Made by a program: the position numbers and the translations under genes. Shown piece by piece: positions 1 through 12,887 of a DNA stretch of 64,000 nt. Source of the DNA: Clostridia bacterium (GTDB taxonomy: Bacteria > Bacillota > Clostridia > Christensenellales > Aristaeellaceae); NCBI GenBank assembly GCA_017526525.1, contig JAFXRG010000015.1:1-64000 (forward strand), given 5' to 3'. The stretch's first letter is position 1. The number at the start of each line of letters is the position of its first letter. The notes below the pieces were generated by a model. That model was not told the DNA's origin and searched no databases. It saw only the letters and a program-made list of their open reading frames with translations.

Positions 1-210
1 CGACAGTACTTTTACCTTCTCCAATGTGCCTCACCTCGTTGATTTTATTCGCTTTGAGGCACTTCGATTCCTTTTGGCTAATTGGTAATTTTGGCTACCA
101 TCCTTTACATTTTGGCGTTGATTTTAAATGAGACCGCCCTGGAGAATCCATATTTTCAGGTAACCGAAACACATCCGCGGCCGGACAGCCGTCCGGCAGT
201 TCAATATTCA
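1..210. other. AT-rich unassigned left edge
   Basis: No gene can be supported here. The first ~120 bases are clearly richer in A+T than the GH43 gene that follows. On the minus strand one frame is open from the edge to about position 280, interrupted by a single TAG at 95-97, and its translation matches no family I recognise. It could be a decayed gene or the tail of a mobile element that lies mostly outside the window. Confidence 0.3.
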
Positions 211-1254
211 TCATGTCACAGAACAACCGGGAAATGAACCTTTTCTTGTATCGCTGCGGAAACAGGGAATCTCTTTGCACGGCGTCCTGTAGGCGTACCG
301 TTCGCCGCGACCGCCGATGGCGTGATACCAGTTCCCCGTCACCTCGTTTACGATGTGAAGCGCATCGGCGGTCTCCTCCATTTCAAACAGCAGGATGCGT
401 TTGCGGGGATGGTCGTTCGGGCAATGGCAGGCCATCATCAACTGCCCTGAAAAAGCATGGAAGAGCATTCCGTGCCCTCCGTCCAGGGAATAGAGCGGCT
501 CTTCCCTTTGTTTCCAGGGGCCTGTGATCTCTCCGCTCATGCTGACCGCATAGGAGATAGCGTAACTGCCGCCGGAGGTAAACCCGGACCAGAGCATCAG
601 CAGATTCCCGTCCGGAAGCCTGTGCAGGAACGGACCGTCCGTCACCCCGCTTGCCCCCGTCCACGGGCCGTCGGAAGCGCGGAAAAGAATGACCGGCTCT
701 CCCGTTGCCTCCCCCAGGTCTTCGGACAGCGGAACGGCGCAGATCTGTCCATCGTCCACCTGCAGCCATTCATGGCAGAACACCAGCCAGGGCTCGCCTT
801 TCCGGTCCGTATACAGCGTTCCGTCCAGGCAGTGCCAGCCCTCCGGCGTCAGCGGCTCTTCCCGTACCGGGCGGAACGGCCCTTTCGGGCTCTCCGACAC
901 CAGGCACTGGCAGCGGCGGTAGGTTCCTTCCGCCCGGAACGAGCTGATCAGATAGTACTTTCCCCGCCAGATATGGCATTCCGGAGCCCAGTAATCCAGG
1001 TCCGCCCAGAAACTGCCTTTCTCAAAGCACACCTGCGGCGCGGACCAGTGAATCAGGTCCGGGCTTTCCAGCACATAGAAGTGTCCGGGGCCGGCAGGCA
1101 CATCCGGAAAACGTTCTGAATCCACAAACTGGACATAGGTATAATACCGTCCGCTTGCTGCGTCCGGAAGAATAAACGGGTCGCTGATATGAACGTCCCG
1201 GATATGGTAGGGATAGGATTTCAGGTCCGCCAGCTCATCAGTGCACTGAAACAT
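211..1254 (-). CDS. GH43-family glycoside hydrolase (arabinosidase/xylosidase type)
   Basis: A 347-residue intracellular (no signal peptide) enzyme with the five-bladed beta-propeller pattern of GH43: an early Asp in HISDPFIL (D25, expected catalytic base), WAPECHIW (~89-96), LDGTLYTD (D144) and GASGVTDGPFLHR (~200-212). In canonical GH43 enzymes the general acid is a Glu in an E-x-P motif; here the equivalent stretch reads TDGP, so the acid may be Asp or lie elsewhere. Family members remove arabinose or xylose from plant oligosaccharides; the exact substrate cannot be read from sequence. The ATG is set by an AGGAGG box 10 bases upstream. The gene is alone, preceded by a promoter with an embedded palindrome. 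Length is typical for a single-domain GH43, and the last ~30 residues look unusual. Confidence 0.85.
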   Translation of the reverse strand: MFQCTDELADLKSYPYHIRDVHISDPFILPDAASGRYYTYVQFVDSERFPDVPAGPGHFYVLESPDLIHWSAPQVCFEKGSFWADLDYWAPECHIWRGKYYLISSFRAEGTYRRCQCLVSESPKGPFRPVREEPLTPEGWHCLDGTLYTDRKGEPWLVFCHEWLQVDDGQICAVPLSEDLGEATGEPVILFRASDGPWTGASGVTDGPFLHRLPDGNLLMLWSGFTSGGSYAISYAVSMSGEITGPWKQREEPLYSLDGGHGMLFHAFSGQLMMACHCPNDHPRKRILLFEMEETADALHIVNEVTGNWYHAIGGRGERYAYRTPCKEIPCFRSDTRKGSFPGCSVT

Positions 1255-1297
1255 CGTCCGGTCCTCCTTTTTCTGTTCAGAAAGGCCTGCTGCTGAT

Positions 1298-1377
1298 TTA
1301 TCTGTTGTCCGGCACGACCGTCCAGTCGTGCCGTTTCATGCGGTCGTATTCCTCTTGTCTTTCGGGATATCATTCAT
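1298..1377 (-). other. Two overlapping mini-ORFs in the GH43 leader
   Basis: Behind an AAGGAG site, ATG at 1377 opens a 13-codon frame ending at 1336. Its stop overlaps the ATG (1339) of a second 13-codon frame ending at 1298. The pair sits between the promoter and the GH43 start. They could be a translated leader or the frameshifted remains of a small gene. No similarity is recognised. Confidence 0.3.
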
Positions 1378-1410
1378 ACGGGTTTCTCCTTTTATGCTTT
1401 CTTTTTCTCT

Positions 1411-1441
1411 ATCATATTCATTAAAGTTTACTTTAAGTCAA
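1411..1441 (-). promoter_or_regulatory. Promoter with palindromic operator for the GH43 gene
   Basis: Read on the minus strand: TTGACT (-35, 1436-1441), a 19-base spacer, TATGAT (-10, 1411-1416). The spacer is almost filled by a perfect palindrome, TTAAAGTTTACTTTAA (1421-1436; 7-base arms around TT). A repressor bound there would block polymerase, which suits a sugar-inducible gene. The long spacer is suboptimal and may imply activator dependence. Which regulator binds is unknown. Confidence 0.5.
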
Positions 1442-1537
1442 TACCTGAATTTTTCTTTGCATTGATGCGGCCGGGATGCATCAGGCCTTGCCGGCTCGTG
1501 TGACAGAATCTCCCGGATCCCGCCCCAATGCACGCAA

Positions 1538-1580
1538 AAATCCCCTGCAGGCTCCTTAATCAAAAAGCTGCAGGGGATTT
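1538..1580. terminator. Bidirectional terminator ending the iron operon
   Basis: Perfect 13-base inverted repeat (1538-1550 and 1568-1580) with a 17-base loop. T-rich tracts follow in both directions: TTTTTGCG on the minus strand after the DtxR-family gene and GTTTTATTT on the plus strand. It sits 130 bases beyond the last gene of the iron operon. Confidence 0.8.
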
Positions 1581-1709
1581 GTTTTATTTCAGGAGCACAT
1601 CGCCCCTGCAAACGGATGACTGCCTGTTTCTTCCGCAACCGTTGCCAAAGAATGGGCTTTCTTCTCATCCATGCGTCCGGTCAGCATCTGCATCGAAACA
1701 ATCTTCGGC

Positions 1710-2078
1710 TTATGTTTCTTTTGCAAGCAGTCCGGAAATTGCAGCATAACTTTCGTCAGAAAGATCATGTTCGATTTTGCAGGCGTCTTTTTCTGCTACT
1801 TTTTTGTCGACCCCTAACTGAATCAGAATACGTGTCAGGGTTTTATGCCGCTCATAAAATTGCCTGGCAATCGCATATCCTTTATCCGTTAAACAGACAG
1901 GGCTCCGGTTGCTCATCATGATGCAGCCGTTTTCCTTCAGTTTTTTCATTGCCACACATACCGAAGGCTTTGATACTCCCATGCTGTCGGCAATATCCTT
2001 TGAGCGGGCATATCCTTTTGTTTCCAGAAGAATGAGTATTTGTTTGAGGTAGTTTTCAAGCGACTCGCATTCGCCCAT
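1710..2078 (-). CDS. DtxR/MntR-family metal-dependent repressor
   Basis: A 122-residue regulator with an N-terminal winged helix (KDIADSMGVSKPSVCVAMKKL, ~27-47) and the short dimerisation/metal domain; it has no C-terminal SH3 domain, so it is MntR-sized. Candidate metal ligands are H78, C100, E103 and H104 (motif DACKIEHDL). A Cys in that position is typical of the iron sensor DtxR/IdeR rather than MntR, which has Glu there, while the MntR N-terminal Asp/Glu ligands are replaced by N9 and K12. I infer an iron-type sensor. It is the last gene of the ten-gene iron operon, 14 bases after the ATPase gene, and probably represses the operon through the TTAG-CTAA boxes upstream of FTR1. ATG chosen from AAGGAG at -13. 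Confidence 0.88.
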   Translation of the reverse strand: MGECESLENYLKQILILLETKGYARSKDIADSMGVSKPSVCVAMKKLKENGCIMMSNRSPVCLTDKGYAIARQFYERHKTLTRILIQLGVDKKVAEKDACKIEHDLSDESYAAISGLLAKET

Positions 2079-2092
2079 CTTCTGCTCACTCC

Positions 2093-2758
2093 TTATTCGA
2101 TCGTCCCATGGCTCATATGAAGGATTTGATCCGCATATGCCTCCGCATCCGTTTCATGGCTGACTACCAGCACTGCTTTTCCCGCTTTTGCAGCCTGCTG
2201 AAATGCAGTTAAAACAGTCCTTGTGTTTTCATTGTCCAGGTCTCCTGTCGGTTCATCCGCCAGAATCACTTCGGGACTTGCTGTCAGTGTACGGGCAATC
2301 GCCATCCGTCGAAGTTCCCCTCCGGACAGTTCCGCCGGCATTGCATTCCGCAAGTCGGAGATGCCGAGCACTGTCATCCAGTTTTCTGCTTCTTCGGTGC
2401 GCAGTGTTCCTCCATACAGCATTCCCGGCAGCAGAATATTTTCATATACTGACAGTGTATCAACAGCACTTCGTCCCTGGGGAATAACGCCTATTCTTTT
2501 ACTGCGCAGCCTGGATAAATCCTTGTCCTCCAAAGCATAGAGATCGGTTTCGTCCAGAAAAACCTTTCCTTCCGATGGATTCAGCAGTCCGCCAATCATG
2601 TTCAGCAATGTCGTTTTGCCCGAACCGCTTTTTCCATTCAGCACCGTAAGCTTTCCGCTTTCCAGTGTCAGCGAAACCGAACGGACTGCCTCAAAGAAGT
2701 TGGCTTCTCCGTGTTTCCGGAAATAGCGCCGGGAAATGTTTTCTGCTCTCAGTTGCAT
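2093..2758 (-). CDS. ABC transporter ATP-binding protein (LolD/MacB type)
   Basis: A 221-residue ATPase with Walker A GKSGSGKTT (~41-49), signature LSGGELRR and Walker B VILADEPTGDLD, followed by the H-loop VVSHETD. The compact LolD-like form pairs with FtsX/MacB-type permeases, here the preceding gene (1-base gap). Such pairs usually do mechanical work on extracytoplasmic proteins rather than classical import. In Campylobacter-type P19 iron loci a comparable ATPase-permease set is required beside FTR1 and P19; I infer the same role here. Confidence 0.9.
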   Translation of the reverse strand: MQLRAENISRRYFRKHGEANFFEAVRSVSLTLESGKLTVLNGKSGSGKTTLLNMIGGLLNPSEGKVFLDETDLYALEDKDLSRLRSKRIGVIPQGRSAVDTLSVYENILLPGMLYGGTLRTEEAENWMTVLGISDLRNAMPAELSGGELRRMAIARTLTASPEVILADEPTGDLDNENTRTVLTAFQQAAKAGKAVLVVSHETDAEAYADQILHMSHGTIE

Positions 2759-2759
2759 C

Positions 2760-3965
2760 CTATGCGCCCTCCCTCAGCGTTGTTCCCGGATCCACCCGGC
2801 TCAACCGGAATGCGGTTCTGGCCGCCGCCGCGCATCCAACCAGAATGGTAACCGCAATTGCAAAGCAGGCATAGAAGACAATGCTCCCTGGGTCAGGTGT
2901 CAGATACGGCAGCTTCAGGCTGGTTTCAATCAGCGCAGTAAAGGGAAATACCAGGATTGCACCCAATGCTGTCCCGCACAACGCACCGGTAAAACTGCAC
3001 AATGCGGTTTCCTTCAGGATCATTCCGGACATCATTTTTCGGCTCATTCCCAGCAGCCGGTATACTGCCAGTTCCCGCCGCCGTTCATTGACCATCATCG
3101 AAAAAACAATAAACAGGATAATCAGTGCCAATATCCAAACCGCACAGATCAGGACGGCAATTGTCCGGGATACGCCGCTCAGGCTGTCCGCCACCTCCGT
3201 CATCATTCCGGCAGTTCGGATTGCTGTTGCTTTCCGCACATGCCCGTTCAGTCTGTTGTTTACCAGAGCGGGATCTGTTTCGGGAAGAACCTTGACATAA
3301 ACAGCGGATACAACTTCCGAATCATTTCCCGAATCGATTTTATGGGAGATTTCTTTCTCTTCCGCTGCCTGAAGCAATACATGAATCGTATTCATGTTGC
3401 AATAAACCGCCGTATCAAGGCCTGTCCCGGTGGATGCCAGTTTAGCCGCAACCCGGCAGCTTTTGTCATAAATACGGAAGGAGTTTCCCACATCTGTTTC
3501 AACCCTGCAGCCAACAACGACCTCCATATCTCCCAGAGGATGATTCAGGCTCTCGGCGATCCAGGGCTGCACCACAAAATCATTCTCCGGATCAAAGCCG
3601 ATCACCTGAACCTTCACAGAACAGCAGTCGGCCTTCATGGAGGAAAGAAAGATCTGGGCAGAAGCTTTTTCAACGCCTTCCGTTTCCCGAACCTTTTCCA
3701 GCGCAGAAGCATCCATATAAAAAGTTCCGATTGTTCCCTGCAGAAGAAGGTTTTTCATGCTGACCTTTGACTCTGCCTCGGCCGGCACCACAATGATATC
3801 GGCTCCAAGGCGGTTTTCCATGCTGCTCAGTCCCCGCCGCAATGACGAAACAACAATGGTTCCGCAGAAAACTGATATTGCCAGAAAAGCAGTCAGAAGA
3901 ATCAGGGAAGTCGTTCTTCCCGGCCTCCGGGATAAATTCCGGATCATCAGCGAAAAATGCTTCAT
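2760..3965 (-). CDS. FtsX/MacB-type ABC transporter permease (third in iron operon)
   Basis: A 401-residue permease: one N-terminal membrane helix (~16-40), a large extracytoplasmic domain (~45-265), then three C-terminal helices (~270-390), the FtsX/MacB topology. It overlaps the upstream DUF4418 gene by four bases (ATGA) and lies one base before its ATPase, so the trio DUF4418-permease-ATPase is translationally coupled. Substrate unknown; in this operon it probably supports iron delivery. Confidence 0.85.
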   Translation of the reverse strand: MKHFSLMIRNLSRRPGRTTSLILLTAFLAISVFCGTIVVSSLRRGLSSMENRLGADIIVVPAEAESKVSMKNLLLQGTIGTFYMDASALEKVRETEGVEKASAQIFLSSMKADCCSVKVQVIGFDPENDFVVQPWIAESLNHPLGDMEVVVGCRVETDVGNSFRIYDKSCRVAAKLASTGTGLDTAVYCNMNTIHVLLQAAEEKEISHKIDSGNDSEVVSAVYVKVLPETDPALVNNRLNGHVRKATAIRTAGMMTEVADSLSGVSRTIAVLICAVWILALIILFIVFSMMVNERRRELAVYRLLGMSRKMMSGMILKETALCSFTGALCGTALGAILVFPFTALIETSLKLPYLTPDPGSIVFYACFAIAVTILVGCAAAARTAFRLSRVDPGTTLREGA

Positions 3966-4369
3966 ACGCTTTCTCTCCTGATTCGGTTCCTTTCAACGAT
4001 GATTCCTCCCGCGGAAACGATCAGTGCAAAGGCAAAAAGAATGATCATCGCCGGTTGCATCACCGCGCGGCAGTGCATGGTATTCATCCTGCAAAGCGGG
4101 AAAACAATTCCGGGAAACATCATTCCGGCAGCCGCAGAACACAGTGAGAGAAAGAACAGAACGATACGGGCAGAATGCTTGCGAATGAACAGAATCAATA
4201 TTGCCAATGCCGCCAGTGCACATCCGCTCCAGAAAACAGCCCTCCCTGCACCCGTGCACAGGGCTTCGCTTCCGTCTTCATGAACGCACGGACCCAGCAC
4301 GGTAACAGAGCCAAGCGCAATCACGGCCGCCAGGATCAGCAGGATTCCACAAAAAGCATTCTTTTTCAT
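3962..4369 (-). CDS. DUF4418-like small integral membrane protein
   Basis: A 135-residue protein predicted to have four membrane helices, with conserved-looking Cys residues outside the membrane (GPCVHEDG, PLCRMNTMHCRA). This pattern and its place beside FtsX-type permeases match my memory of DUF4418. Biochemical role unknown; the Cys/Met/His-rich PLCRMNTMHC loop is suggestive of metal or redox contact, which is inference only. It lies seven bases after the ATPase gene and overlaps the following permease gene by four bases. Confidence 0.65.
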   Translation of the reverse strand: MKKNAFCGILLILAAVIALGSVTVLGPCVHEDGSEALCTGAGRAVFWSGCALAALAILILFIRKHSARIVLFFLSLCSAAAGMMFPGIVFPLCRMNTMHCRAVMQPAMIILFAFALIVSAGGIIVERNRIRRESV

Positions 4370-4375
4370 ATCCCG

Positions 4376-5095
4376 TTACCTCTTGCTCCCCGGAATCAGT
4401 CTGGCAAGCCATTTTTTCTGCTGTTCCTCAAAATTTTCATTGATCACTTCCCGGGCCACCTTGCCGTGTTCCAGCACAATCGTCCTCTGCGCAGCTTCCG
4501 CAACTTCCGGGTCATGGGTAACCACAATCAGCGTGGTGCCTTCCGCATGCAGCTGGGCAAACAGGTCCAGAACAATATTCTCATTTGCCTCGTCCAGGTT
4601 TCCTGTAGGCTCGTCAGCCAGAATCAGTTCCGGATGGTTAATCAAAGCGCGTGCAACACAGACACGTTGCTGTTCCCCACCGGACAGCTGGCTGGGCAAA
4701 TGATGTGCCCGTTCCCGCAGTCCAACCCGTCCAAGCGCTTCCAGCGCTTCCTGTTCATCCGGCATTGAATGGTAATACTGGCTGACCATGACGTTTTCAA
4801 CAGCAGTCAGATAGTTCACCATATGAAACTGCTGGAAAATCAGGCCGATTTTATCCCGGCGGATATCTGTAAGCTTTTTACTGCTTTCCTTTGCAATATC
4901 CACGCCGTCGAGCAAAACTTCGCCAAGTGTCGGTTTATCCATGCAGCCGATGATATTCATCATGGTGCTCTTGCCGGAGCCGGACGGGCCCATGATCGCA
5001 ACCCATTCGCCTTTATCCACATGAACATTCACATTGTCCAGGGCTTTCAGATCTCCATAGATCTTCGATACATTCTTCAATTCAAGCAGACTCAT
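4376..5095 (-). CDS. ABC transporter ATP-binding protein (MacB-type)
   Basis: A 239-residue ATPase with Walker A GPSGSGKST (~36-44), signature LSGGEQQR, Walker B LILADEPTGNLD and H-loop VVTHDPE. It follows the FMN-binding-domain permease gene and presumably energises the two permeases encoded just upstream (5118-6578 and 6580-7878) as a heterodimer. Start chosen at an ATG behind AAGGAG. Equivalent to the ATPase of Campylobacter P19 loci by context. Confidence 0.9.
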   Translation of the reverse strand: MSLLELKNVSKIYGDLKALDNVNVHVDKGEWVAIMGPSGSGKSTMMNIIGCMDKPTLGEVLLDGVDIAKESSKKLTDIRRDKIGLIFQQFHMVNYLTAVENVMVSQYYHSMPDEQEALEALGRVGLRERAHHLPSQLSGGEQQRVCVARALINHPELILADEPTGNLDEANENIVLDLFAQLHAEGTTLIVVTHDPEVAEAAQRTIVLEHGKVAREVINENFEEQQKKWLARLIPGSKR

Positions 5096-5117
5096 CGTTC
5101 ACTTCTCCTTATCCTTC

Positions 5118-6578
5118 TCACTCGTCTTTGAGCACGATTGCGGGGTCAATAGCGACCGCGCGTTTAATCGGCTGCAGGCAGCTGAGCGCTGCCACACCCA
5201 TGGATACAAGCACTGCCGCCGGCAGCAGCAACGGCTGGAAAGTGATCGAGGAGCCAAACACATTGACGCTGACAATCTGGGCAAATACAAAGCCCAGGAT
5301 CGCTCCCAGAACGCCGCCCAGCAGGCCCAGGAACATCCCTTCACCCAAAAATTCCGCCCGGATGCTCCCATCGGACGCGCCCAGCGCTTTTCGCAATCCG
5401 ATTTCCCGTCGGCGTTCAGAAACTACTGCCATCATGGTCGTTGAAACACAGATCATTGTCAGAATCAGTACAACAGCCGTCACCAAAAACACAAGGCTTT
5501 GCAGTTTTCCAAGAACCGCTGTTTCAGATCGGGTAACCCGTTTCACCAGGCGCGCCCGGACGCCGTCAGCATTTTCGGTAATCTGCTCTGCATAAGCTTC
5601 AAGCTCTTCGGCAGACGCGCTGACACTCAGTTCCGCCACGTCCACGGCATCACTTCCGGTCAGACCGGCCATGTCTTCCAGGCCCATAAACACGTAGGAT
5701 TCCTCTTCGCCGCCGGTTGTCAGAATCCCGGTCACTGTATATTTCATTGTTTTAGCTGCCGCAGTGCTTTGAGTATTGCGCGCGGTATTCAAAGCTTCCA
5801 CGACAGCTGTGGATGTGACGGTTGCTCCGCTCAGCGCATCCACATCTTCTCCCAGTGTCATCGGAAGAGCCTTTCCGATAAACTGACGGGTAAATGCTTC
5901 GTCTGTTTGTGCCAGCCCGCCGATCTCCGGAGTCTGGGTGCCCGCATCAATTGTCAGGGAAGCGATCTTTGCAGAATCATCCAGTTTTACAGTGACATAT
6001 ACCGCTCCGCCGCTCCATCCTTCCGCACTTCCGCTCAATACGGCTCCCGGCTGTCTGTCCTTTGAAGGATCCCCTTCCGTGTTCCCTGCTGTCGGCTGCC
6101 AGGTCAGTTCCATCCCGGAGCCTTCCCGTATACCGATTGTTTCCGCAATTTCTTTTCCGACCAGAATCTCTCTGGATTTCTCCGGATACCGGCCTTCAAC
6201 GCTGAAATAAGGGCTGGTCCTGGTAATCTGGGCAAAATCCGTCCCGGCAGCAGTAAAGGATTGCTGCCGTGTGGTCATGTCAACCCGGATATAACGATAC
6301 GGTGCAGCGCCAACCAGCTGATCCGTCGGAATACTTTCCAGTGCTTTATCCATCTGATCTTTGGTCATGCCTTCTTCGCCATCAGACAATACCAGCATAT
6401 TTGCACCAAAGGATCTGAATTGAGCTCCCATTTGCCGGGGCACATCCACATAGATCGTTACAAGCCCTGCCAGAATCGTTGCTCCGATCCCGATTGACAG
6501 CAGAGCAATCAGCATCCGGCTCCGGCGCCTGAGCAATGATGCGGTAATCATCCGCAGAAACATTCTTCTTTTTGTCAT
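5118..6578 (-). CDS. MacB/FtsX-type permease with inserted FMN-binding domain
   Basis: A 486-residue permease: N-terminal helix (~20-42), extracytoplasmic MacB-like domain, and three C-terminal helices. Between ~178 and 267 the extracytoplasmic part contains an FMN_bind-like segment: GAVYVTVKLDDSAKIASLTI, then DVDALSGATVTSTAVVEAL. SGAT is the motif in which the Thr (here T253) of NqrC/RnfG-like proteins receives covalent FMN from ApbE. I know this domain from Nqr/Rnf subunits and extracytosolic electron carriers, not as a usual part of MacB permeases. Its location outside the membrane in an iron operon suggests a redox step on iron (inference). An alternative ATG lies 15 bases upstream, overlapping the previous gene; the GGGGGT box favours the start given. 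No apbE in the window. Confidence 0.85.
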   Translation of the reverse strand: MTKRRMFLRMITASLLRRRSRMLIALLSIGIGATILAGLVTIYVDVPRQMGAQFRSFGANMLVLSDGEEGMTKDQMDKALESIPTDQLVGAAPYRYIRVDMTTRQQSFTAAGTDFAQITRTSPYFSVEGRYPEKSREILVGKEIAETIGIREGSGMELTWQPTAGNTEGDPSKDRQPGAVLSGSAEGWSGGAVYVTVKLDDSAKIASLTIDAGTQTPEIGGLAQTDEAFTRQFIGKALPMTLGEDVDALSGATVTSTAVVEALNTARNTQSTAAAKTMKYTVTGILTTGGEEESYVFMGLEDMAGLTGSDAVDVAELSVSASAEELEAYAEQITENADGVRARLVKRVTRSETAVLGKLQSLVFLVTAVVLILTMICVSTTMMAVVSERRREIGLRKALGASDGSIRAEFLGEGMFLGLLGGVLGAILGFVFAQIVSVNVFGSSITFQPLLLPAAVLVSMGVAALSCLQPIKRAVAIDPAIVLKDE

Positions 6579-6579
6579 T

Positions 6580-7878
6580 TCAATGACCCCCATGCAACAC
6601 TTCAGCCGGACGCAGCCTCAGTACTGTCCGGATTGCAGGCAGGCTGCCGGCAAGCGTCACTGCAGCGACAAGGCCTGCTACGATGGGTATAACCGCAGGT
6701 TTCATTTCAACTGCGGCGCTGAATACACTGCGGCCAATCAGCTGAGCAAAACCAAATCCCAGGAAATACCCGGCGACTCCGCCCAGCAGCGCCGTTACCA
6801 TGATTTCTGTCATAATCACTCCGGTGATCGAATAATCCCGTGCACCGATGGCCTTGAGCAGGCCGATTTCTTTCGCCCGCTCCATGACACTGGCCGTCAC
6901 CAGATTGCTGATGCCCAATGCTGAACCAATCAGGCTCAGTGCTGTGATCAGAATCATAAGGAGCTGCGTTTTTTCAAGGATCGCGCCTTCTCCTTCCGCC
7001 ACCTTCCGAACGGCAGAAGCTACAGACCCGGGGATGGCTTCCTGGATCTGATAGCAGATCGCGCTTACATATGCCGTACAATACCAGGTTTCATAATCCC
7101 GGCCAGAAAGCGCTGCAGGGTTCTTTGCCGCCCTGCGCGCCAGTTCGTTATCCGGCGTGGTAATGGCGGATACTTCCACAGAAGCCACTTTTCCTTCACG
7201 GCCTGTCAGTTCCTGTACCAGCGCCAGGGTGCCAAAGATCTGCTCATCTTCATCACCGCCTGCATCATAAATGCCGACCACCGTCACCGTCTTTGCAGCC
7301 TTTGCAGCTTTCAGCTTTATACTGTCTCCTGTTTTCCATCCCTGTTCCTGGGCGATCGCAGTCCCGATCATGATTTCCCCGTCTGCATTCTCATCCTTCT
7401 CGTCCAGCCAGCGGCCTTCTGTGATATCCCACCAGGAACGCATGCCCACCACGCCGGCATCCAGTTCTTCACCCGTGGGAAGCGAAAGATGATGATTGAA
7501 CCAGCTGCCATTCAGTTTCACAGCGCTGCCGTCCGGAAGCTCAGCCTGTGTATCCAGAAGTGGTGCAAAATCCACAATATTGAACGCCCAGAAAATGGTT
7601 TTGATCTTGCCCAGATCCGACTCATTCAGCCAGGCTGTGTTCAGTTCTTCTCCGTTTTCGCCCACATCATAGATATCTGCCAGAAGAGAAGAATCTTTGG
7701 GCTTTACCACAATGTTTGCACCATAGTTTTTCAGTTCCTGATTCACCTTGTCGCCTACATCCATCATCACGTTCAGCATGCCTGTGGCCAGACTGGCTCC
7801 AAGCGCAATCGTAAACGCAATCAGCAGCATCTTTCCCTTCTGATGGAAAAGTACGCCGCGGATCATTCTGAACAGCAT
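6580..7878 (-). CDS. MacB/FtsX-type ABC permease (first in iron operon)
   Basis: A 432-residue permease with N-terminal helix (~15-38), a large extracytoplasmic domain and three C-terminal helices in the FtsX arrangement. The start at MLFRMIRG is preferred because AAAGGAGG lies nine bases upstream; a longer 448-residue version has no such site. It lies directly before the FMN-domain permease, and the two probably form a heterodimer with the ATPase at 4376-5095. The tandem permease pair followed by an ATPase mirrors Cj1661-Cj1663 of Campylobacter. Confidence 0.87.
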   Translation of the reverse strand: MLFRMIRGVLFHQKGKMLLIAFTIALGASLATGMLNVMMDVGDKVNQELKNYGANIVVKPKDSSLLADIYDVGENGEELNTAWLNESDLGKIKTIFWAFNIVDFAPLLDTQAELPDGSAVKLNGSWFNHHLSLPTGEELDAGVVGMRSWWDITEGRWLDEKDENADGEIMIGTAIAQEQGWKTGDSIKLKAAKAAKTVTVVGIYDAGGDEDEQIFGTLALVQELTGREGKVASVEVSAITTPDNELARRAAKNPAALSGRDYETWYCTAYVSAICYQIQEAIPGSVASAVRKVAEGEGAILEKTQLLMILITALSLIGSALGISNLVTASVMERAKEIGLLKAIGARDYSITGVIMTEIMVTALLGGVAGYFLGFGFAQLIGRSVFSAAVEMKPAVIPIVAGLVAAVTLAGSLPAIRTVLRLRPAEVLHGGH

Positions 7879-7992
7879 CTGTACGCGCCTCCTTTGCAAT
7901 GGCCGTTGCCATAGTTCCGTCCGCACAGGCTCCGGATCTTTATCGGCTGCAGCATGGAACGTGCTGCCCGGACCCGGGATCTGGGCACGTCC

Positions 7993-9294
7993 TCATTTGA
8001 ATTCTTTTTCGCCTTCCAGCAAATCTTCCAGCCGGAACACCAGGTTGCCGCCGCTCACTTCATAGTTCAACGGAATCGGATTGCATCCGCCTTTAAACCC
8101 TATGGTGTTGATATTCATCACCACATCACAGCGTTTACAGACCACCTGGCTTCCACGCTCGTAGTAACCGGCATTCCCGCATACCTCACAGGCGTCAAAG
8201 CCAACACCAAAGCTGGCCGAATTCGGCTTTTTCACCACAATCCACCGGATCGTTACATTCCGCTCCGTAGCATATTCGAAACGATGCAGGTGACCGTCGT
8301 TTACTGATTCTGTCGGAATCAGGATGGTATCTCCCTCTATGGTATAAACCTCCGGAGCGGACAGCTCCACCTCTCTTGTGTCATAGGCTTTGACAACTGT
8401 CAGAATCATCACAAACAGGAGAATCATCGCCAGGGTGATAATGGCCAGCCGTCTCCGGCGCCGATTGCCGGCCCTCAGCTTGCGCAGCTGCGCAGCATGT
8501 TCATAAGGTTCAGTCACCCGCGTGTTTTCCAGCAGGAACAGGAAGGCAAGCAATGCGGCCAGGGCCGCGCAGATCCAGATAAATACCATGGCGTTTGTCG
8601 CAGTCCACATGCTGAAGGATCCAATCCAGCCATATTCTGCCTCAGTGTACTTCACCGGCCATTTCAGCCATTTCGCCCGGCTGATCCACGGCACAAAAAA
8701 GCGGCCGAGGCAATAGATCAAATAGGTCAGCAATCCGGCGCGCAGGATCCCGCGCGAGACGCCCGTTTTTCTGATATGAACAGCGCAGCCATACAGGATA
8801 CGCGAATATACGAACAATAACAGAAGCGCCAGTGCCCAGCCGCCCAAACGTTCCATATAATACCCGGAAAAGAAACCGTTCCCCATGGTATTGAAGCTGA
8901 AGGGATAAAGCAAAACCGTCGGCAGTCTGAAGAAAATCATCCCCGCGGAAACTGCCGTTCCGCAAAGGATCAGGGCAAAACCGCTTTTCCCGGGTTTCCC
9001 TGTTTTCCCCCTCCGGATCAGGGAGCACACAAAAAACGCCACAATGGATATCATCAGGAAAACATATGTCCAATGATTCCAGTGACTGGAAATGATCAGT
9101 TTTGTTGTTTGTTTTACCGCGGCCAGCGCAGCACCTGCCGCAATTCCGGCACTGATTCCCGCAATATGCCCCCTGCGTCCCGTTTGTCCGCATAAAAGGC
9201 CCAGTACCGCATGCATCAATGTCACCATTGTGACCGTGAAGAACAGATCCTGAATAACAGTCCAGAGATAATACAGCAAAACGCCTTCCCCCAA
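7993..9294 (-). CDS. DUF2318 Cys-rich membrane protein of P19 iron loci
   Basis: A ~433-residue protein with about eight membrane helices (1-300) and a C-terminal extracytoplasmic DUF2318 domain carrying CEVC, CKRC and a further Cys in KGGCNP. These Cys probably bind metal or an Fe-S centre; the family is found with P19 and FTR1 (Cj1660 in Campylobacter). Its role in moving or oxidising/reducing iron is not settled. The frame opens with a TTG (9294) and I see no convincing ATG start; a GGGGGAAGG sequence suggests initiation at a TTG only a few codons in, so the N-terminus is uncertain. A strong hairpin lies upstream. Confidence 0.8.
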   Translation of the reverse strand: MGEGVLLYYLWTVIQDLFFTVTMVTLMHAVLGLLCGQTGRRGHIAGISAGIAAGAALAAVKQTTKLIISSHWNHWTYVFLMISIVAFFVCSLIRRGKTGKPGKSGFALILCGTAVSAGMIFFRLPTVLLYPFSFNTMGNGFFSGYYMERLGGWALALLLLFVYSRILYGCAVHIRKTGVSRGILRAGLLTYLIYCLGRFFVPWISRAKWLKWPVKYTEAEYGWIGSFSMWTATNAMVFIWICAALAALLAFLFLLENTRVTEPYEHAAQLRKLRAGNRRRRRLAIITLAMILLFVMILTVVKAYDTREVELSAPEVYTIEGDTILIPTESVNDGHLHRFEYATERNVTIRWIVVKKPNSASFGVGFDACEVCGNAGYYERGSQVVCKRCDVVMNINTIGFKGGCNPIPLNYEVSGGNLVFRLEDLLEGEKEFK

Positions 9295-9314
9295 ACAGAA
9301 TGAACAGATACAGC

Positions 9315-9353
9315 CTGCCGGCGCGGCATCCCCCGCGGATACCGCGCCGGCAG
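9315..9353. promoter_or_regulatory. Intercistronic GC-rich hairpin without T-tract
   Basis: A perfect 12-base inverted repeat (9315-9326 / 9342-9353, CTGCCGGCGCGG) with a 15-base loop separates the P19 gene from the DUF2318 gene. No T-run follows on the minus strand, so it is more likely an mRNA 3'-end stabiliser or partial attenuator that raises P19/FTR1 message over the downstream ABC genes. Confidence 0.6.
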
Positions 9354-9382
9354 ATCAGAACACCTTCATGCTCAAGAATCGA

Positions 9383-9937
9383 TTACCACTGTTTAACAAA
9401 CTTCCAGCCGGTCCAGGTCGCTTCCAGGGGTTCAGTCCAGAAACCATCCTTGGCGTCAACGCCGGTTTCAGAGTCCACATGCAGCAGATATCCGTTTTCC
9501 GCGGGGCTCTTGATGTACAGCGTGATGGAGTATTCACCGTCAGCCAGCTTGATATTGTTGCCATAGTGAGGGCCGTCAGAAGCCGCCATGGGCATCATGG
9601 AACCGGAAGCCACTTCCTTGCCCTCGGTATCCTTGATCACAAAATCAATGGTCAGATAGGGCACCCACTGATCCACCGGGAAGGCATATCCGTTTTCATT
9701 GGCAGTCAGGTCCACTTCGATGTGCAGGTCCGTATTTTCCTTGGCAGTCGCCTGATCAACGGGCGCCATATCCACGGGCTGGAAATAGACCATGCTCATG
9801 GTCATGAAGCCGACTTCCTGTTCGCCTTCAACGCCCAGTTCGAATTCATCAAAACCGGCTTCGTCCTCAGCCATCGCCACAGCAGACATGCTGAACAGCA
9901 TCATCGCGGCCAGTACCAGTGAAAGCAGTTTCTTCAT
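9383..9937 (-). CDS. P19/Tp34-family periplasmic iron-binding protein
   Basis: A 184-residue exported protein: Sec signal ending AMAE (~1-24), no lipobox Cys, then a ~160-residue immunoglobulin-like beta domain. The P19 metal-site residues are recognisable: LHIEVDL (H72, E74), SMMPM (Met cluster 114-117), DGPHYG (H124) and LLHVD (H153), matching the His/Glu/Met/His/His site of Campylobacter P19, which binds Cu and Fe. The likely job is handing iron to FTR1, encoded just upstream. The start follows AAAGGAGG; a 27-codon in-frame extension lacks an RBS. Lack of a lipid anchor is notable for a Gram-positive-type genome. Confidence 0.9.
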   Translation of the reverse strand: MKKLLSLVLAAMMLFSMSAVAMAEDEAGFDEFELGVEGEQEVGFMTMSMVYFQPVDMAPVDQATAKENTDLHIEVDLTANENGYAFPVDQWVPYLTIDFVIKDTEGKEVASGSMMPMAASDGPHYGNNIKLADGEYSITLYIKSPAENGYLLHVDSETGVDAKDGFWTEPLEATWTGWKFVKQW

Positions 9938-10028
9938 GTGTAAGTTCCTCCTTTGATTTACAGTACAATAGTGATTTCCTGGATGGTATTCTTCAGCACG
10001 GCACGCGGGGGGCACCATGCGAAAAATC

Positions 10029-11777
10029 TTATGAATGCATGGCGGTCAATTCCTTTTTCTGGGCTGCCAGCTTGCCGCGATAATGGGCAATCATAAAGGT
10101 AATCAGCAGGATGATCGCCAGGATCAGCTGCGGCACCAGCGTCTCCAGGTAAGGATAGATTCCGAGAACCTGAATCACATCATTTTCCGGAATTCCCGGC
10201 ACCCGCAGCGTCAGGTCAAACAGGTTGCCTTCTGCCAGTTCCTTGATACCGCTTCCGAGGAAGCTGACGCACATCACCGCCATCAGGATCGATGTCGCCG
10301 TGAAGAATACTATGATTGGAAGCTTTACAGAAAGCTTTGTGATTGCCAGATAGACAAACACCAGAATCACAATGCCCGCTCCGAGCCCTGCCCAGACCAT
10401 ACCGGCGTTTCCTTCCTGCAGCATCGGCTGATAGAAGAGCACGACCTCCGCGCCTTCCCTGAACACGGACAGAAACGCCGTGAACGCCAGCGTGAAGGCG
10501 GAACGCTTTTCCACGCCGGAACGGACTTTGTTGTCAAGGTAACCTGTCCATGCTGCTGCTTCCGCCTTTGAGATCATCCAGTTGGAAACGTAGAACAGTA
10601 CGCATACAGCAATCAGTGCCGTGATCCCTTCAATCAGTTCCTGCGCCATACCGGCTCCGGCTACAGCCTGTTTGACCAGTCCCAGAACCGCAGCCGCTGC
10701 AAAGCTTGCCAGGATTCCGGCCAGAGCGCCAATATATACATTCTTCAGGCTCTTTCCGTTCCCGCTCTTGACAAGATAGGCAATGATTGCGGCAATGACC
10801 AGAATTGCTTCAAGTCCTTCACGGAGGATGATGCCGAAAGCTCCGAGAAATGTCAGCCACTGCGGACTGGCCTGTCCCGCTGCGGCGGTCTCTTCCGGGG
10901 CAGTCACTTCAGACCGCGCTGTATTGTCCTGCTTTGCTGCGGTCTGTTCGTCCAGTGCCCTGGCTTTTTTCAGCAAAACCTGTTTTGTCTTATCGCTTGT
11001 CGTGCGATATTTATTTTTCTGAAACTTCTCCGCTCCATTGCGAATCAGGCTGCGCAGCGTACTGAACTGGCTTTCCGCTTCCTGACGGTCTGACAACCCC
11101 AGCCCGGCATAAATCTTATGCGCCAGCCCGGACTCCTCATAAACACTGTAATATGCTGTGTTCAGATTGTCTTCCGCCGCCTCAAAATCCTTATCCAGAT
11201 AGGCCAGATACGCCGTGTCCAGCAGTTCCTTTACCAGGCTTGCAGCCTCATACCAGCTGGCATATTTTGCTGCAGCGTTCGGATCCGGTGAATAGTCGGG
11301 ATACGGATCAGATGAGACCGGTTCTCCGCCTTTGTAAAGCTTTGTTCCGCTTTGCGCTCCGCCCTGCTGCGCGGCCAGTTTGTTTCCGTCTTCGCGGATC
11401 ATGCTTTTCAGTTTAAACAGTGAACTGCGTACAGAAACGATCGTCTCCTGATCTGTATTGTCTTTCTTAACTGCCGCTTTACAGGCGGAAAACTGCATTT
11501 CCACCGCGTTTTTGCGGACGCCGGAAATATAACTCATGGTCTGGCGTTCAAATCCGGTCGTTTCATATACCCGGAAATAAGCATCATTGACATTGCGGTA
11601 AGCCGCATCAGCGTTTCCGGCAAGATATTCCTCAAAAGCCGTATCCAGATACCGGTCTATTTCGTCTGCCGCATCCGCCCATCGTGTGCTGACTGCTTCA
11701 CTGAAAACCGGAAGACACTGCAAAATCAAAAACAAGCTCAGTATCAAACTTGTTCCCAGTTGTAATACCTTTTTCAC
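10029..11777 (-). CDS. FTR1-family iron permease with duplicated N-terminal helical domain
   Basis: A 582-residue protein: signal peptide (~1-28), a soluble N-terminal region with two related helical repeats (~32-130 and ~176-250, each with D-T-A-[FY]-x-x-Y-L and N-x-x-[DT]-A-Y-[FY]-x-V-Y-E), an Ala/Thr-rich linker, and a seven-helix FTR1 domain. The iron-pathway REXXE motifs are LREGLEAIL (R319-E323) and FREGAEVVLF (~446). FTR1 proteins move Fe3+ across the membrane, usually after Fe2+ oxidation. First gene of the operon; start is GTG behind AGAGG. Expression is probably iron-repressed through two TTAG-CTAA boxes in the promoter. Confidence 0.93.
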   Translation of the reverse strand: MKKVLQLGTSLILSLFLILQCLPVFSEAVSTRWADAADEIDRYLDTAFEEYLAGNADAAYRNVNDAYFRVYETTGFERQTMSYISGVRKNAVEMQFSACKAAVKKDNTDQETIVSVRSSLFKLKSMIREDGNKLAAQQGGAQSGTKLYKGGEPVSSDPYPDYSPDPNAAAKYASWYEAASLVKELLDTAYLAYLDKDFEAAEDNLNTAYYSVYEESGLAHKIYAGLGLSDRQEAESQFSTLRSLIRNGAEKFQKNKYRTTSDKTKQVLLKKARALDEQTAAKQDNTARSEVTAPEETAAAGQASPQWLTFLGAFGIILREGLEAILVIAAIIAYLVKSGNGKSLKNVYIGALAGILASFAAAAVLGLVKQAVAGAGMAQELIEGITALIAVCVLFYVSNWMISKAEAAAWTGYLDNKVRSGVEKRSAFTLAFTAFLSVFREGAEVVLFYQPMLQEGNAGMVWAGLGAGIVILVFVYLAITKLSVKLPIIVFFTATSILMAVMCVSFLGSGIKELAEGNLFDLTLRVPGIPENDVIQVLGIYPYLETLVPQLILAIILLITFMIAHYRGKLAAQKKELTAMHS

Positions 11778-11809
11778 AACGCTTGCCTCTTTCTGCTGTT
11801 ATTCTTTCA

Positions 11810-11860
11810 TTAGCATCGACTAACAGCGGATATTATATTAGCATAAACTAATCCATTTGC
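11810..11860 (-). promoter_or_regulatory. Iron-operon promoter with two DtxR-like boxes
   Basis: On the minus strand a consensus TATAAT (11832-11837) lies under a weak -35 (GCAAAT, 11855-11860; 17-base spacer). Box 1, TTAGCATAAACTAA (11838-11851), fills the spacer next to the -10. Box 2, TTAGCATCGACTAA (11810-11823), covers the probable start point. The TTAG...CTAA half-sites resemble the DtxR consensus (TTAGG...CCTAA). The operon encodes a DtxR-family protein, so repression by metal-loaded regulator is the natural reading. Confidence 0.65.
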
Positions 11861-11935
11861 CATGCCTGATATTGACCATTTAATAAATAATATTAAAAAC
11901 GTTTGTATTGGATTTAAAAATGTATTATTTTATTA

Positions 11936-11949
11936 TTAGTTTAAGCTAA
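11936..11949. promoter_or_regulatory. Third DtxR-like box before the AraC-type gene
   Basis: TTAGTTTAAGCTAA; its reverse complement TTAGCTTAAACTAA differs from box 1 at one base. It lies 37 bases before the AraC-type start, in an AT-rich stretch with several possible -10 elements, so the divergent regulator is probably under the same control. Confidence 0.55.
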
Positions 11950-11986
11950 TATCGTTGGTAGCTAAACAGTATCGGAGGGATCTGGC

Positions 11987-12379
11987 ATGGTGAATAAAAA
12001 GCAGACTACAGCAGGGAAATCCCTTGCCGTGCAGGCTGCGCATTATATCCGGGAACACAGTGAACAAAAGTTTTCATTGTCAGCAATCGCCGGAATGCTC
12101 TATGTGAACAGCAATTATCTTGCCCGTGTATTTAAACATGAAACAGGCCATACCCTGTTGTGGTATCATAATGCAATCCGCTGTGAAAACGCCAAAAAAC
12201 TGCTGTCGGAAACAAATCTTTCCGTTGCTGAAATCGGATCCGCTGTAGGGTATATTTCTGCCGCTCATTTTTCTCATCAGTTCAAGAAAATGACCGGTAT
12301 TTCTCCAAGCGGCTGGAGGATAAATGCCCATAAACAAAAGGCAACTGAAAATCCGATTGATTTCGGGCAGTTAACATGA
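11987..12379 (+). CDS. AraC-family protein, DNA-binding domain only
   Basis: A 130-residue protein consisting almost wholly of the two helix-turn-helix motifs of AraC/XylS (FSLSAIAGMLYVNSNYLARVFK, ~28-49; LSVAEIGSAVGYISAAHFS, ~75-93, then FKKMTGISPSGWR). It lacks the N-terminal ligand domain, like MarA/SoxS-type regulators, whose activity is set by their amount. The start follows GGAGGG. It is divergent from the iron operon and preceded by a DtxR-like box, so it may activate iron genes under starvation; that link is inference. Confidence 0.85.
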   Translation: MVNKKQTTAGKSLAVQAAHYIREHSEQKFSLSAIAGMLYVNSNYLARVFKHETGHTLLWYHNAIRCENAKKLLSETNLSVAEIGSAVGYISAAHFSHQFKKMTGISPSGWRINAHKQKATENPIDFGQLT

Positions 12380-12406
12380 CCCTTTGCGGTTCCGTCAGCA
12401 ATCATA

Positions 12407-12450
12407 AAAAGAAGCGGTGCGATCGGTGTATTCGCGCCGTTTCTTTTATC
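12407..12450 (+). terminator. Terminator after the AraC-type gene
   Basis: Arms 12407-12421 and 12433-12447 pair over 15 positions with two G-U pairs around an 11-base loop; the right arm ends in TTCTTTT. It lies 28 bases after the AraC-type stop. Confidence 0.6.
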
Positions 12451-12574
12451 CTTCTGCCTTATATTTCGCTTCCCGCCTGATCCGGCTGACCGCCTGCGGC
12501 CAGCGTGTCGGCGCGTCCGTTTCTGATTTATCATCCGCATGAAATATGAACGGGAGTCGCGTTCATGATGGATG

Positions 12575-12604
12575 TTGACAGGTTTCACGGGATTCGTGTA
12601 TGCT
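12575..12604 (+). promoter_or_regulatory. Promoter and 280-base leader for the glycosidase fusion
   Basis: TTGACA (12575-12580), 18-base spacer, TATGCT (12599-12604). From there to the start at 12888 is an untranslated leader of ~280 bases in which I find no convincing gene, only short frames in all phases. The stretch 12451-12574 also shows nothing I can name. Confidence 0.6.
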
Positions 12605-12887
12605 GTTTTTATAATCAGCGTTTCCCGCCCGCAAGCCTTCCGGAGAAGCCCGTCGGAAACCGGAAGGGACAGAATCAGCATACCCGGAGATACAGGACAT
12701 CACCTGGATTATTTACGAAGCAATTTCCCGTATCGCGTGGGAATCATCACCGTTTTTCCGGGAAGCCGTTGAGATTCAGCGGATTCCTTTTTTACCGCCG
12801 GGACGGATCCCGGCTGATTGCGGGAAATCAGGCGGCTCCCGCTTTCATCCCCGGAACTGCCGTTGCCGCACCGGCAGGGTAAAGCAT

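What the first reader, a model, noticed from the sequence alone, without database searches (positions are those of the whole stretch)
5778..6047. FMN-binding (flavinylation) domain inserted into an ABC permease
Residues ~178-267 of the permease read as an FMN_bind domain ending DALSGATVTS, the motif whose Thr is flavinylated by ApbE in NqrC/RnfG proteins. The domain lies in the extracytoplasmic part of a MacB/FtsX permease inside an iron operon. FTR1 transports Fe3+ while free iron in anaerobes is Fe2+, so a covalent flavin next to FTR1, P19 and the Cys-rich DUF2318 domain could supply the redox chemistry these systems are thought to need. To my knowledge this fusion is not a described standard architecture.
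Basis: partly seen in the sequence, partly recalled or inferred. Interest (0 to 1): 0.8.

Follow-up and report, generated by a model that had tools for sequence, protein, structure and literature searches.

The report
Flavin domain built into iron permease
A gut bacterium has a probable electron-carrying flavin domain spliced into one subunit of an ABC transporter that belongs to an iron-uptake gene cluster, which suggests that iron uptake and electron delivery have been wired together in one protein.

Summary
Confirmed. The FetC-type permease at 5118-6593(-) holds a Pfam FMN_bind domain (42.4 bits, cut-off 22) inserted into its extracytoplasmic MacB-like core. The cluster is the known FTR1-P19-FtrD(DUF2318)-FetBCD iron system.

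The insertion is conserved. All 80 best loci (of 287 relatives; the rest not seen) in GTDB genomes carry it. The motif D-x-x-[S/T/A]-G-A-T is present in 80 of 81 distinct fused loci; Thr253 is invariant in the 81 aligned rows. The genome encodes one ApbE and an Rnf operon followed by a three-FMN-domain protein.

In 14 other clusters of the phylum FetC is unfused; three have a separate FMN_bind gene after FetD, two a small CxxCH protein. Separate FMN-binding or thioredoxin partners are published; a fusion inside the permease was not found in my text searches. The fused form is one clade on the FetC tree; the inserted domain resembles Rnf-linked multi-FMN domains.

Most likely the domain is a flavinylated electron carrier tethered to a mechanotransmitting ABC complex, reducing iron (or FtrD) during uptake. 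Flavinylation, fold, redox direction and the role of ATP are untested.

The parts
5118..6593 (-). FetC-type FtsX/MacB permease with inserted FMN_bind domain (likely start Met at 6578, 486 aa)
   Evidence: Pfam FtsX + FMN_bind; orthologues start at the same Met
5766..6053 (-). inserted FMN_bind domain with flanking variable linkers (residues 176-271); Pfam core 5781-6011
   Evidence: absent as a clean block from 14 unfused FetC
5820..5840 (-). flavinylation motif D-A-L-S-G-A-T; Thr253 codon 5820-5822
   Evidence: D247, G251, A252, T253, S256 invariant in 81 distinct rows; aligns with the GAT of RnfG and FMN4 chains
10029..11777 (-). FTR1 iron permease with REGLE and REGAE motifs
   Evidence: Pfam PF03239; motifs
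9383..10018 (-). P19 (FetP) iron-binding protein
   Evidence: Pfam PF10634
7993..9294 (-). FtrD-like/DUF2318 membrane protein (FetA) with CxxC-x13-CxxC-x14-C
   Evidence: Pfam PF10080; motif
6580..7926 (-). FetB-type MacB/FtsX permease, no FMN domain
   Evidence: Pfam MacB_PCD + FtsX
4376..5095 (-). FetD-type ABC ATPase
   Evidence: Pfam ABC_tran
3962..4369 (-). DUF4418 protein, conserved after FetD in fused clusters
   Evidence: Pfam PF14387; 49 of 53 distinct fused loci with at least 4.5 kb downstream
2760..3965 (-). third FtsX permease
   Evidence: 50 of 53
2093..2758 (-). second ABC ATPase
   Evidence: 50 of 53
1710..2078 (-). DtxR/IdeR-type iron-dependent repressor
   Evidence: Pfam PF01325 and PF02742
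11810..11949 (.). three TTAG-N6-CTAA boxes (11810-11823, 11838-11851, 11936-11949) upstream of FTR1, candidate repressor operators
   Evidence: the only 3 matches in the window, 0.23 expected; at least one box in 48 of 53 distinct fused loci

Best explanation
FetC here is a type VII (MacB/LolC-like) ABC permease whose extracytoplasmic core carries an RnfG-like FMN_bind domain. ApbE probably attaches FMN to Thr253 by a phosphoester bond. The tethered flavin most likely serves as the extracytoplasmic electron carrier of the FTR1-P19-FtrD-FetBCD iron-uptake system. It would take electrons from the cell's flavinylated envelope chain (most plausibly Rnf and its three-FMN protein) and pass them to ferric iron, or to the Cys-rich FtrD domain, so that iron can be released from ligands and moved by P19/FTR1. 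It does in cis what a separate FMN-binding protein, thioredoxin or cytochrome does in related clusters. Shown by sequence: the domain, its place, conservation, one clade, gene context, ApbE and Rnf. Inferred: flavinylation, electron route, reducing direction, and any coupling to ATP hydrolysis.
For: FMN_bind above cut-off inside an FtsX permease; RnfG-model hits (below those models' cut-offs) and RnfG/FMN4 structure-chain hits to the insert. Topology: one TM at 22-40, the insert within the 45-350 extracytoplasmic part, TMs from 362 on. D247/G251/A252/T253/S256 invariant in 81 distinct rows while the linkers vary (0.47 and 0.49 against 0.73, 82 rows with one duplicate); dN/dS of the insert 0.056-0.176 in 8 pairs. 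ApbE in the genome, in 18 of 19 fused same-genus genomes and 46 of 50 contig genomes. FTR1, P19, FtrD, FetB upstream in that order in 51 of 51 distinct fused loci with at least 6 kb upstream. Rnf operon plus three-FMN protein; RnfC in 8 of 8 genomes checked. Repressor-like boxes upstream of FTR1 in 48 of 53. Separate FMN_bind after FetD in 3 of 14 unfused clusters. Literature: FMN-binding protein as seventh gene in Firmicutes and others, thioredoxin in most Proteobacteria (PMC6083913); 260 P19 clusters with an FMN-binding gene (PMC8238504). In B. breve, which has the separate FMN-binding SifE, an apbE mutant was sensitive to dipyridyl and phenanthroline but not ciclopirox, like the sifA-D mutants (PMC5449479 table; its authors explain this by Fe-S repair). 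A three-FMN protein has -184 mV (PMC10339131), low enough to reduce many ferric complexes (inference).
Against: No flavin, structure or transport data. ApbE is also present in 14 of 18 same-genus genomes in which the fusion was not found, so it is permissive and not diagnostic. In C. jejuni the partner thioredoxins FetE/FetF look more like oxidases (PMC10783030). Nine of 14 unfused clusters show no FMN or CxxCH motif gene after FetD, so the module may be dispensable or lie elsewhere. One of 81 distinct fused loci (L096) lacks the GAT motif. ApbE was not found in 4 of 50 fused MAGs.
Confidence: 0.6

Rival explanations
1. The flavin works as an electron acceptor: it helps oxidise Fe2+ to Fe3+ next to FTR1, as the ferroxidase partner does for yeast Ftr1 (recalled), and hands electrons back to the envelope chain.
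For: FTR1 REGLE/REGAE motifs are present; in C. jejuni FetE/FetF look like oxidases (PMC10783030).
Against: A three-FMN protein sits at -184 mV, unfavourable for oxidising Fe2+ unless Fe3+ is very tightly bound (inference). PMC6083913 and PMC8238504 both propose reduction.
Confidence: 0.15
2. The flavin is a redox switch or sensor that gates the ABC complex and does not itself handle iron electrons.
For: The domain sits inside the extracytoplasmic core of a type VII permease; MacB-type proteins do work in that domain (PMC5985334).
Against: In some related clusters the partner is a separate redox protein, which fits electron transfer more simply than gating.
Confidence: 0.1
3. The flavin keeps the Cys-rich FtrD domain (or a putative Fe-S centre in it) reduced, in place of FetE/F thioredoxins, and iron is touched only indirectly.
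For: FtrD has CxxC-x13-CxxC-x14-C, the pattern described in PMC6083913. Thioredoxin and FMN-binding partners replace each other across phyla.
Against: No direct evidence; covalent FMN domains usually pass electrons to redox centres, not to disulfides (recalled).
Confidence: 0.1
4. The domain is not flavinylated and serves only as a binding or structural module.
For: L096 keeps the cluster without the GAT motif.
Against: 80 of 81 distinct loci keep the motif and Thr253 is invariant in the 81 aligned rows; ApbE is present.
Confidence: 0.04
5. Assembly or annotation artefact joining two genes.
For: The window's genome and most named carriers are MAGs.
Against: 81 distinct fused loci with the same architecture; the same-genus genomes G022 and G035, each one contig, carry it; no stops within the ORF from its Met in the ten sequences checked.
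Confidence: 0.01

Closest known systems
C. jejuni FetMP-FetABCDEF (1649-1656) and homologues
   Same: Gene order FTR1, P19, DUF2318 membrane protein, two FtsX permeases, ATPase; iron-linked regulation
   Different: C. jejuni has two separate thioredoxins after FetD; here no separate partner is recognised and FMN_bind lies inside FetC, followed by DUF4418-FtsX-ATPase
Bifidobacterium breve BfeUO-SifABCDE
   Same: FTR1, a BfeO that looks P19-like (my inference), membrane protein, two FtsX permeases, ATPase and an FMN-binding protein (SifE); mutants grow poorly with iron chelators (PMC5449479)
   Different: SifE is a separate protein
P19-associated FMN-binding clusters of Meheust et al. 2021 (PMC8238504)
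   Same: FMN_bind domain in a P19/FTR1 cluster, proposed iron redox role
   Different: The passages I saw mention no permease fusion ('permease', 'FtsX' and 'ABC' have 0 occurrences in the main text); their supplementary table, which may contain such proteins, was not available
RnfG/NqrC and multi-flavinylated proteins
   Same: The insert is an RnfG-like FMN_bind domain with the same GAT site
   Different: Those are anchored or free carriers, not ABC permease domains
MacB/LolCDE type VII ABC transporters
   Same: FtsX C-terminal domain, one TM then a large extracytoplasmic core then further TMs
   Different: The best-matching stretches of the MacB/FtsX chains lie in the C-terminal permease part (three LolF chains from residue 242 on); an FMN_bind domain in an ABC permease is not known to me

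Membership tests
FMN_bind (PF04205) | profile match above gathering cut-off | tested here: met
   42.4 bits against 22
FMN_bind (PF04205) | conserved acceptor Thr in D-x-x-[S/T]-G-A-T (motif recalled; aligned with RnfG) | tested here: met
ApbE flavinylation substrate | covalent FMN on Thr | not testable with these tools
   needs mass spectrometry or in-gel fluorescence
ApbE flavinylation substrate | extracytoplasmic site and ApbE in the genome | tested here: met
   hydropathy and charge; ApbE 285.5 bits, with a signal-like N-terminus by eye
FetMP-FetABCD (P19/FTR1) system | conserved first six genes in order | tested here: met
   window; first four upstream in order in 51 of 51 distinct fused loci, FetD after FetC in 52 of 53
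FetMP-FetABCD (P19/FTR1) system | separate redox gene after fetD | tested here: not met
   none recognised in the window; no small FMN_bind protein after FetD in fused loci; thioredoxins were not searched for in the fetched loci
Type VII ABC permease (MacB/FtsX) | FtsX domain, MacB_PCD core, 4 TMs | tested here: met
   FtsX 51 of 51, MacB_PCD 40 of 51; the window protein itself has no MacB_PCD hit at 0.001, its second permease does; four TM stretches
Type VII ABC permease (MacB/FtsX) | mechanotransmission without substrate channel | not testable with these tools
   -
FMN_bind fold | predicted fold like RnfG/FMN4 | not testable with these tools
   structure prediction switched off; sequence profile hits 3dcz, 8p2b, 7zc6 at 1.2e-6 to 4.5e-5

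The most novel reading that the evidence does not exclude
A redox-active ABC mechanotransmitter: ATP hydrolysis by FetBCD moves a covalently bound flavin between an electron donor (the Rnf-linked multi-FMN chain) and an iron or FtrD acceptor, so that ATP gates or powers electron delivery for iron uptake. To my knowledge (recall, not a search of all print) no ABC permease with a covalent redox cofactor has been described.
Probability: 0.2. Interest if true: 0.88.

Novelty: new variant of a known kind. Interest (0 to 1): 0.6.

Why it matters
How the FTR1-P19-FetABCD iron systems use their ABC transporter and redox partner is not settled in the papers I saw. A natural fusion puts the redox cofactor on one named subunit (FetC), at one place, with one acceptor residue. 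That turns an open question (where do electrons enter, and is ATP coupled to iron redox chemistry?) into a single-residue test. It also predicts that separate SifE-type FMN proteins, thioredoxins and small cytochromes dock on FetC.

Tried and rejected
The first orthologue alignment was wrong because minus-strand loci were not reverse-complemented; it was discarded and redone. Gene maps by longest ORF were confused by antisense ORFs in GC-rich loci; counts were taken instead from homology-first scripts and recounted. The recount found that L086 and L159 are the same contig, so the 82 fused rows are 81 distinct loci; the figures in this report are the recounted ones unless said otherwise. Rfam found nothing at gathering threshold in 1-13000.

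Considered and rejected: gene fusion of FetC with its neighbour SifE-type protein. The insert is nearest to Rnf-linked multi-FMN domains and far from the three separate partners, though the six R rows in that tree had been picked by similarity to the query; the seven own-genome rows had not. Also rejected: mis-binned contigs as the sole cause of the wide distribution. In G470 rpoB (C3:301124-303244) and fused fetC (C3:331906-333366) lie on one 355,847-base contig, and its RpoB falls outside the sampled members of the window's order; only that one genome was checked this way.

Rows dropped: L096 was left out of the conservation alignment because its motif is deleted; L028 (G011, match in two pieces) was left out of A1; L138 and L153 gave no intact FetC and were left out of the 14 unfused; of 30 genomes asked for rpoB (29 matched) 25 entered the RpoB tree. 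The best 80 of 287 genome contigs relatives were returned, and 50 of those 80 were searched for ApbE. The two sets of carriers (same-genus genomes, genome-contig loci) overlap: several contigs have equal lengths in both.

Paper searches for the fusion or its context. In their listings I recognised no paper describing the fusion; subscription papers and supplementary tables were not available. I saw passages only (not whole texts) of PMC8238504, PMC5449479, PMC10979944, PMC10783030, PMC6083913, PMC5985334, PMC10339131. The genus name used was a guess from memory and is unverified.

Full report
What is there. The window's minus strand holds a cluster FTR1 (10029-11777), P19 (9383-10018), FtrD-like/DUF2318 (7993-9294), FetB-type permease (6580-7926), FetC-type permease (5118-6593), FetD-type ATPase (4376-5095), DUF4418 (3962-4369), FtsX permease (2760-3965), ATPase (2093-2758) and a DtxR-type repressor (1710-2078). 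FetC gives Pfam FtsX (76.5 bits) and FMN_bind (42.4 bits, cut-off 22), the latter at 5781-6011. The insert also matches NCBIfam RnfG models below their cut-offs, and its profile matches PDB chains of RnfG (3dcz, 7zc6) and an FMN4 domain (8p2b) at 1.2e-6 to 4.5e-5.

Where it sits. Hydropathy gives a first TM at 22-40, positively charged before it, and later TMs from 362 on, so residues of about 45-350 with the insert are extracytoplasmic. Aligned with 14 unfused FetC proteins of the same phylum (372-393 aa), the domain is a clean block of roughly 100 residues between two strands of the MacB-like core (strands by eye). In five unfused FetC the MacB_PCD profile runs on to positions 185-205 of 207; of three fused proteins in that call two have a hit and it breaks off at 143. 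Pfam finds FMN_bind in 37 of 51 FetC proteins scanned, the number of fused rows given; FtsX in 51, MacB_PCD in 40.

Is it kept? Among 61 relatives, 19 of 37 same-genus genomes (own included) hold the fused permease (in G011 matched in two pieces); the best match in the 24 same-order genomes of other families is far weaker (E 1.2e-17 or worse, or none) and is not the whole protein. The genome-contig scan found 287 relatives; the best 80, all that were returned, match over the whole query (one, L114, to residue 464) and are fused by length. With L161 (same genus) this makes 81 distinct fused loci; 80 keep D-x-x-[S/T/A]-G-A-T. L159, fetched as another genus of the family, proved to be the same contig as L086. 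In the alignment of 81 distinct rows (window plus 80, L096 left out) D247, G251, A252, T253 and S256 are invariant; mean conservation is 0.73 in the insert and 0.47 and 0.49 in the linkers (one duplicate row). dN/dS of the insert is 0.056 to 0.176 in eight pairs, like the rest of the extracytoplasmic part. A domain kept under purifying selection with variable linkers and an invariant acceptor site is what a tethered flavin carrier should look like (inference).

Partners in the genome. One ApbE (285.5 bits), whose N-terminus looks like a signal peptide by eye. An Rnf operon on contig C49: RnfC, an RnfD-RnfG fusion, RnfE, RnfA, RnfB, then a protein with three FMN_bind domains. RnfC is present in 8 of 8 fused-permease genomes of the genus checked. 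ApbE occurs in 18 of 19 same-genus genomes with the fusion and 14 of 18 without, and in 46 of 50 contig genomes; it is permissive and not diagnostic, since the own genome has other FMN_bind proteins.

Context across the phylum. P19 is rare: 17 of 398 phylum genomes, 6 of 297 order genomes, own included in both. Sixteen other P19 regions were fetched; 14 have an intact FetC, each unfused. After FetD, 3 of 14 have a separate FMN_bind gene, 2 of 14 a 78-91 aa protein with two CxxCH motifs (Cytochrome_C7 below its Pfam cut-off), and 9 show neither by motif. In fused clusters with at least 4.5 kb downstream, FetD follows in 52 of 53 and DUF4418, FtsX and the second ATPase in 49, 50 and 50; FTR1, P19, FtrD and FetB lie upstream in that order in 51 of 51 with at least 6 kb upstream; FMN_bind was seen elsewhere in 9 of 81 loci, in proteins of 414-1015 aa and not directly after FetD (loci with short flanks could hide more). 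That thioredoxin, FMN-binding protein and cytochrome alternate in this part of the cluster is published (PMC6083913, passages; PMC8238504, passages). The new point is that one lineage has put the flavin domain into FetC.

A hint from genetics. In B. breve, whose cluster has the separate FMN-binding SifE, transposon mutants of sifA-D are sensitive to dipyridyl and phenanthroline but not ciclopirox; the apbE mutant shows a similar, partly weaker pattern (PMC5449479, Table 3). The authors explain apbE by Fe-S repair; failed flavinylation of SifE would explain it too (inference).

Origin. On a tree of FetC without the insert columns the 28 fused rows form one side of a branch (100/99) with L150 the nearest unfused row; some unfused branches are long. 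The inserted domain groups with itself (SH-aLRT 99) and scores highest against multi-FMN domains of the genus, among them two from the own three-FMN protein (60.5 and 54.4 bits), against 3.8-13.5 bits for the separate partners. So it is more likely a recruited Rnf-linked shuttle domain than a fusion with the neighbour. Spread: RpoB of carriers whose record titles say Lachnospiraceae, Blautia, Oscillospiraceae or Ruminococcaceae falls outside the sampled members of the window's order in 8 of 9 cases, and in those 8 FetC identity to the window (66-73%) exceeds RpoB identity (63-66%), whereas three same-genus genomes have RpoB 91-95% and FetC 65-84%. This points to horizontal transfer among ruminant-gut Clostridia. 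In G470 rpoB and fused fetC are on one contig.

Regulation. The pattern TTAG-N6-CTAA occurs three times in the window, each within 175 bases of FTR1's start (0.23 expected in the window), and at least once upstream of FTR1 in 48 of 53 distinct fused loci (103 boxes; background 0.013 per 410 nt). It resembles DtxR/IdeR boxes (recalled), and the cluster carries such a repressor, so iron control is likely.

Mechanism. MacB-type transporters turn ATP hydrolysis into movement of the extracytoplasmic domain and need not move a substrate across the membrane (PMC5985334, passages). A covalent flavin there, near -184 mV if like SaFMN3 (PMC10339131, passages), would reduce many ferric complexes. I therefore favour a tethered reductase role: Rnf or another donor to the three-FMN protein, to FetC-FMN, to iron on P19/FTR1 or to FtrD. 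Each arrow is inferred. The rival direction (Fe2+ oxidation for FTR1) has some support from C. jejuni FetE/F (PMC10783030, passages) but is thermodynamically harder. Whether ATP gates the electron step is the boldest open question.

Limits. No structure could be predicted. Most named genomes are MAGs. 207 of 287 relatives were not seen. The genus name is not given by any search. Text searches cover open papers only, and Meheust's supplementary table, which may already list such proteins, was not available.

Noticed in passing
11810-11949: Three TTAG-N6-CTAA boxes upstream of FTR1, the only ones in the window, found upstream of FTR1 in 48 of 53 distinct fused loci; candidate DtxR-type operators.
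   Followed up: partly
2093-4369: DUF4418, a third FtsX permease and a second ATPase follow FetD in 49-50 of 53 fused clusters; not recognised after FetD in the unfused clusters listed. Role unknown.
   Followed up: partly
L162 4754-11085 (own genome, contig C49): Rnf operon with RnfD and RnfG fused in one protein, followed by a three-FMN-domain protein with EEKPA repeats.
   Followed up: partly
L145 14728-15000; L147 4986-5219: Small lipoprotein-like proteins with two CxxCH motifs directly after FetD in two unfused clusters: a possible cytochrome partner.
   Followed up: partly
L144 13056-14447: 464-aa ORF with seven CxxCH motifs about 1.3 kb upstream of FTR1 in an unfused cluster.
   Followed up: no
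L116, L105, L056 and other fused loci: FetC is more similar to the window than RpoB is in 8 genomes placed outside the window's sampled order: horizontal transfer of the fused iron cluster in ruminant guts.
   Followed up: partly
L096 7072-8532: Fused FetC with an in-frame loss that removes the GAT flavinylation motif; real loss or assembly error.
   Followed up: no
L143 9294-10566: Two tandem P19 genes in one cluster.
   Followed up: no
11987-12379: Divergent 130-aa ORF next to FTR1 that looks AraC-type by eye (recalled); a 130-aa ORF lies in the same place in L161 7340-7729.
   Followed up: no
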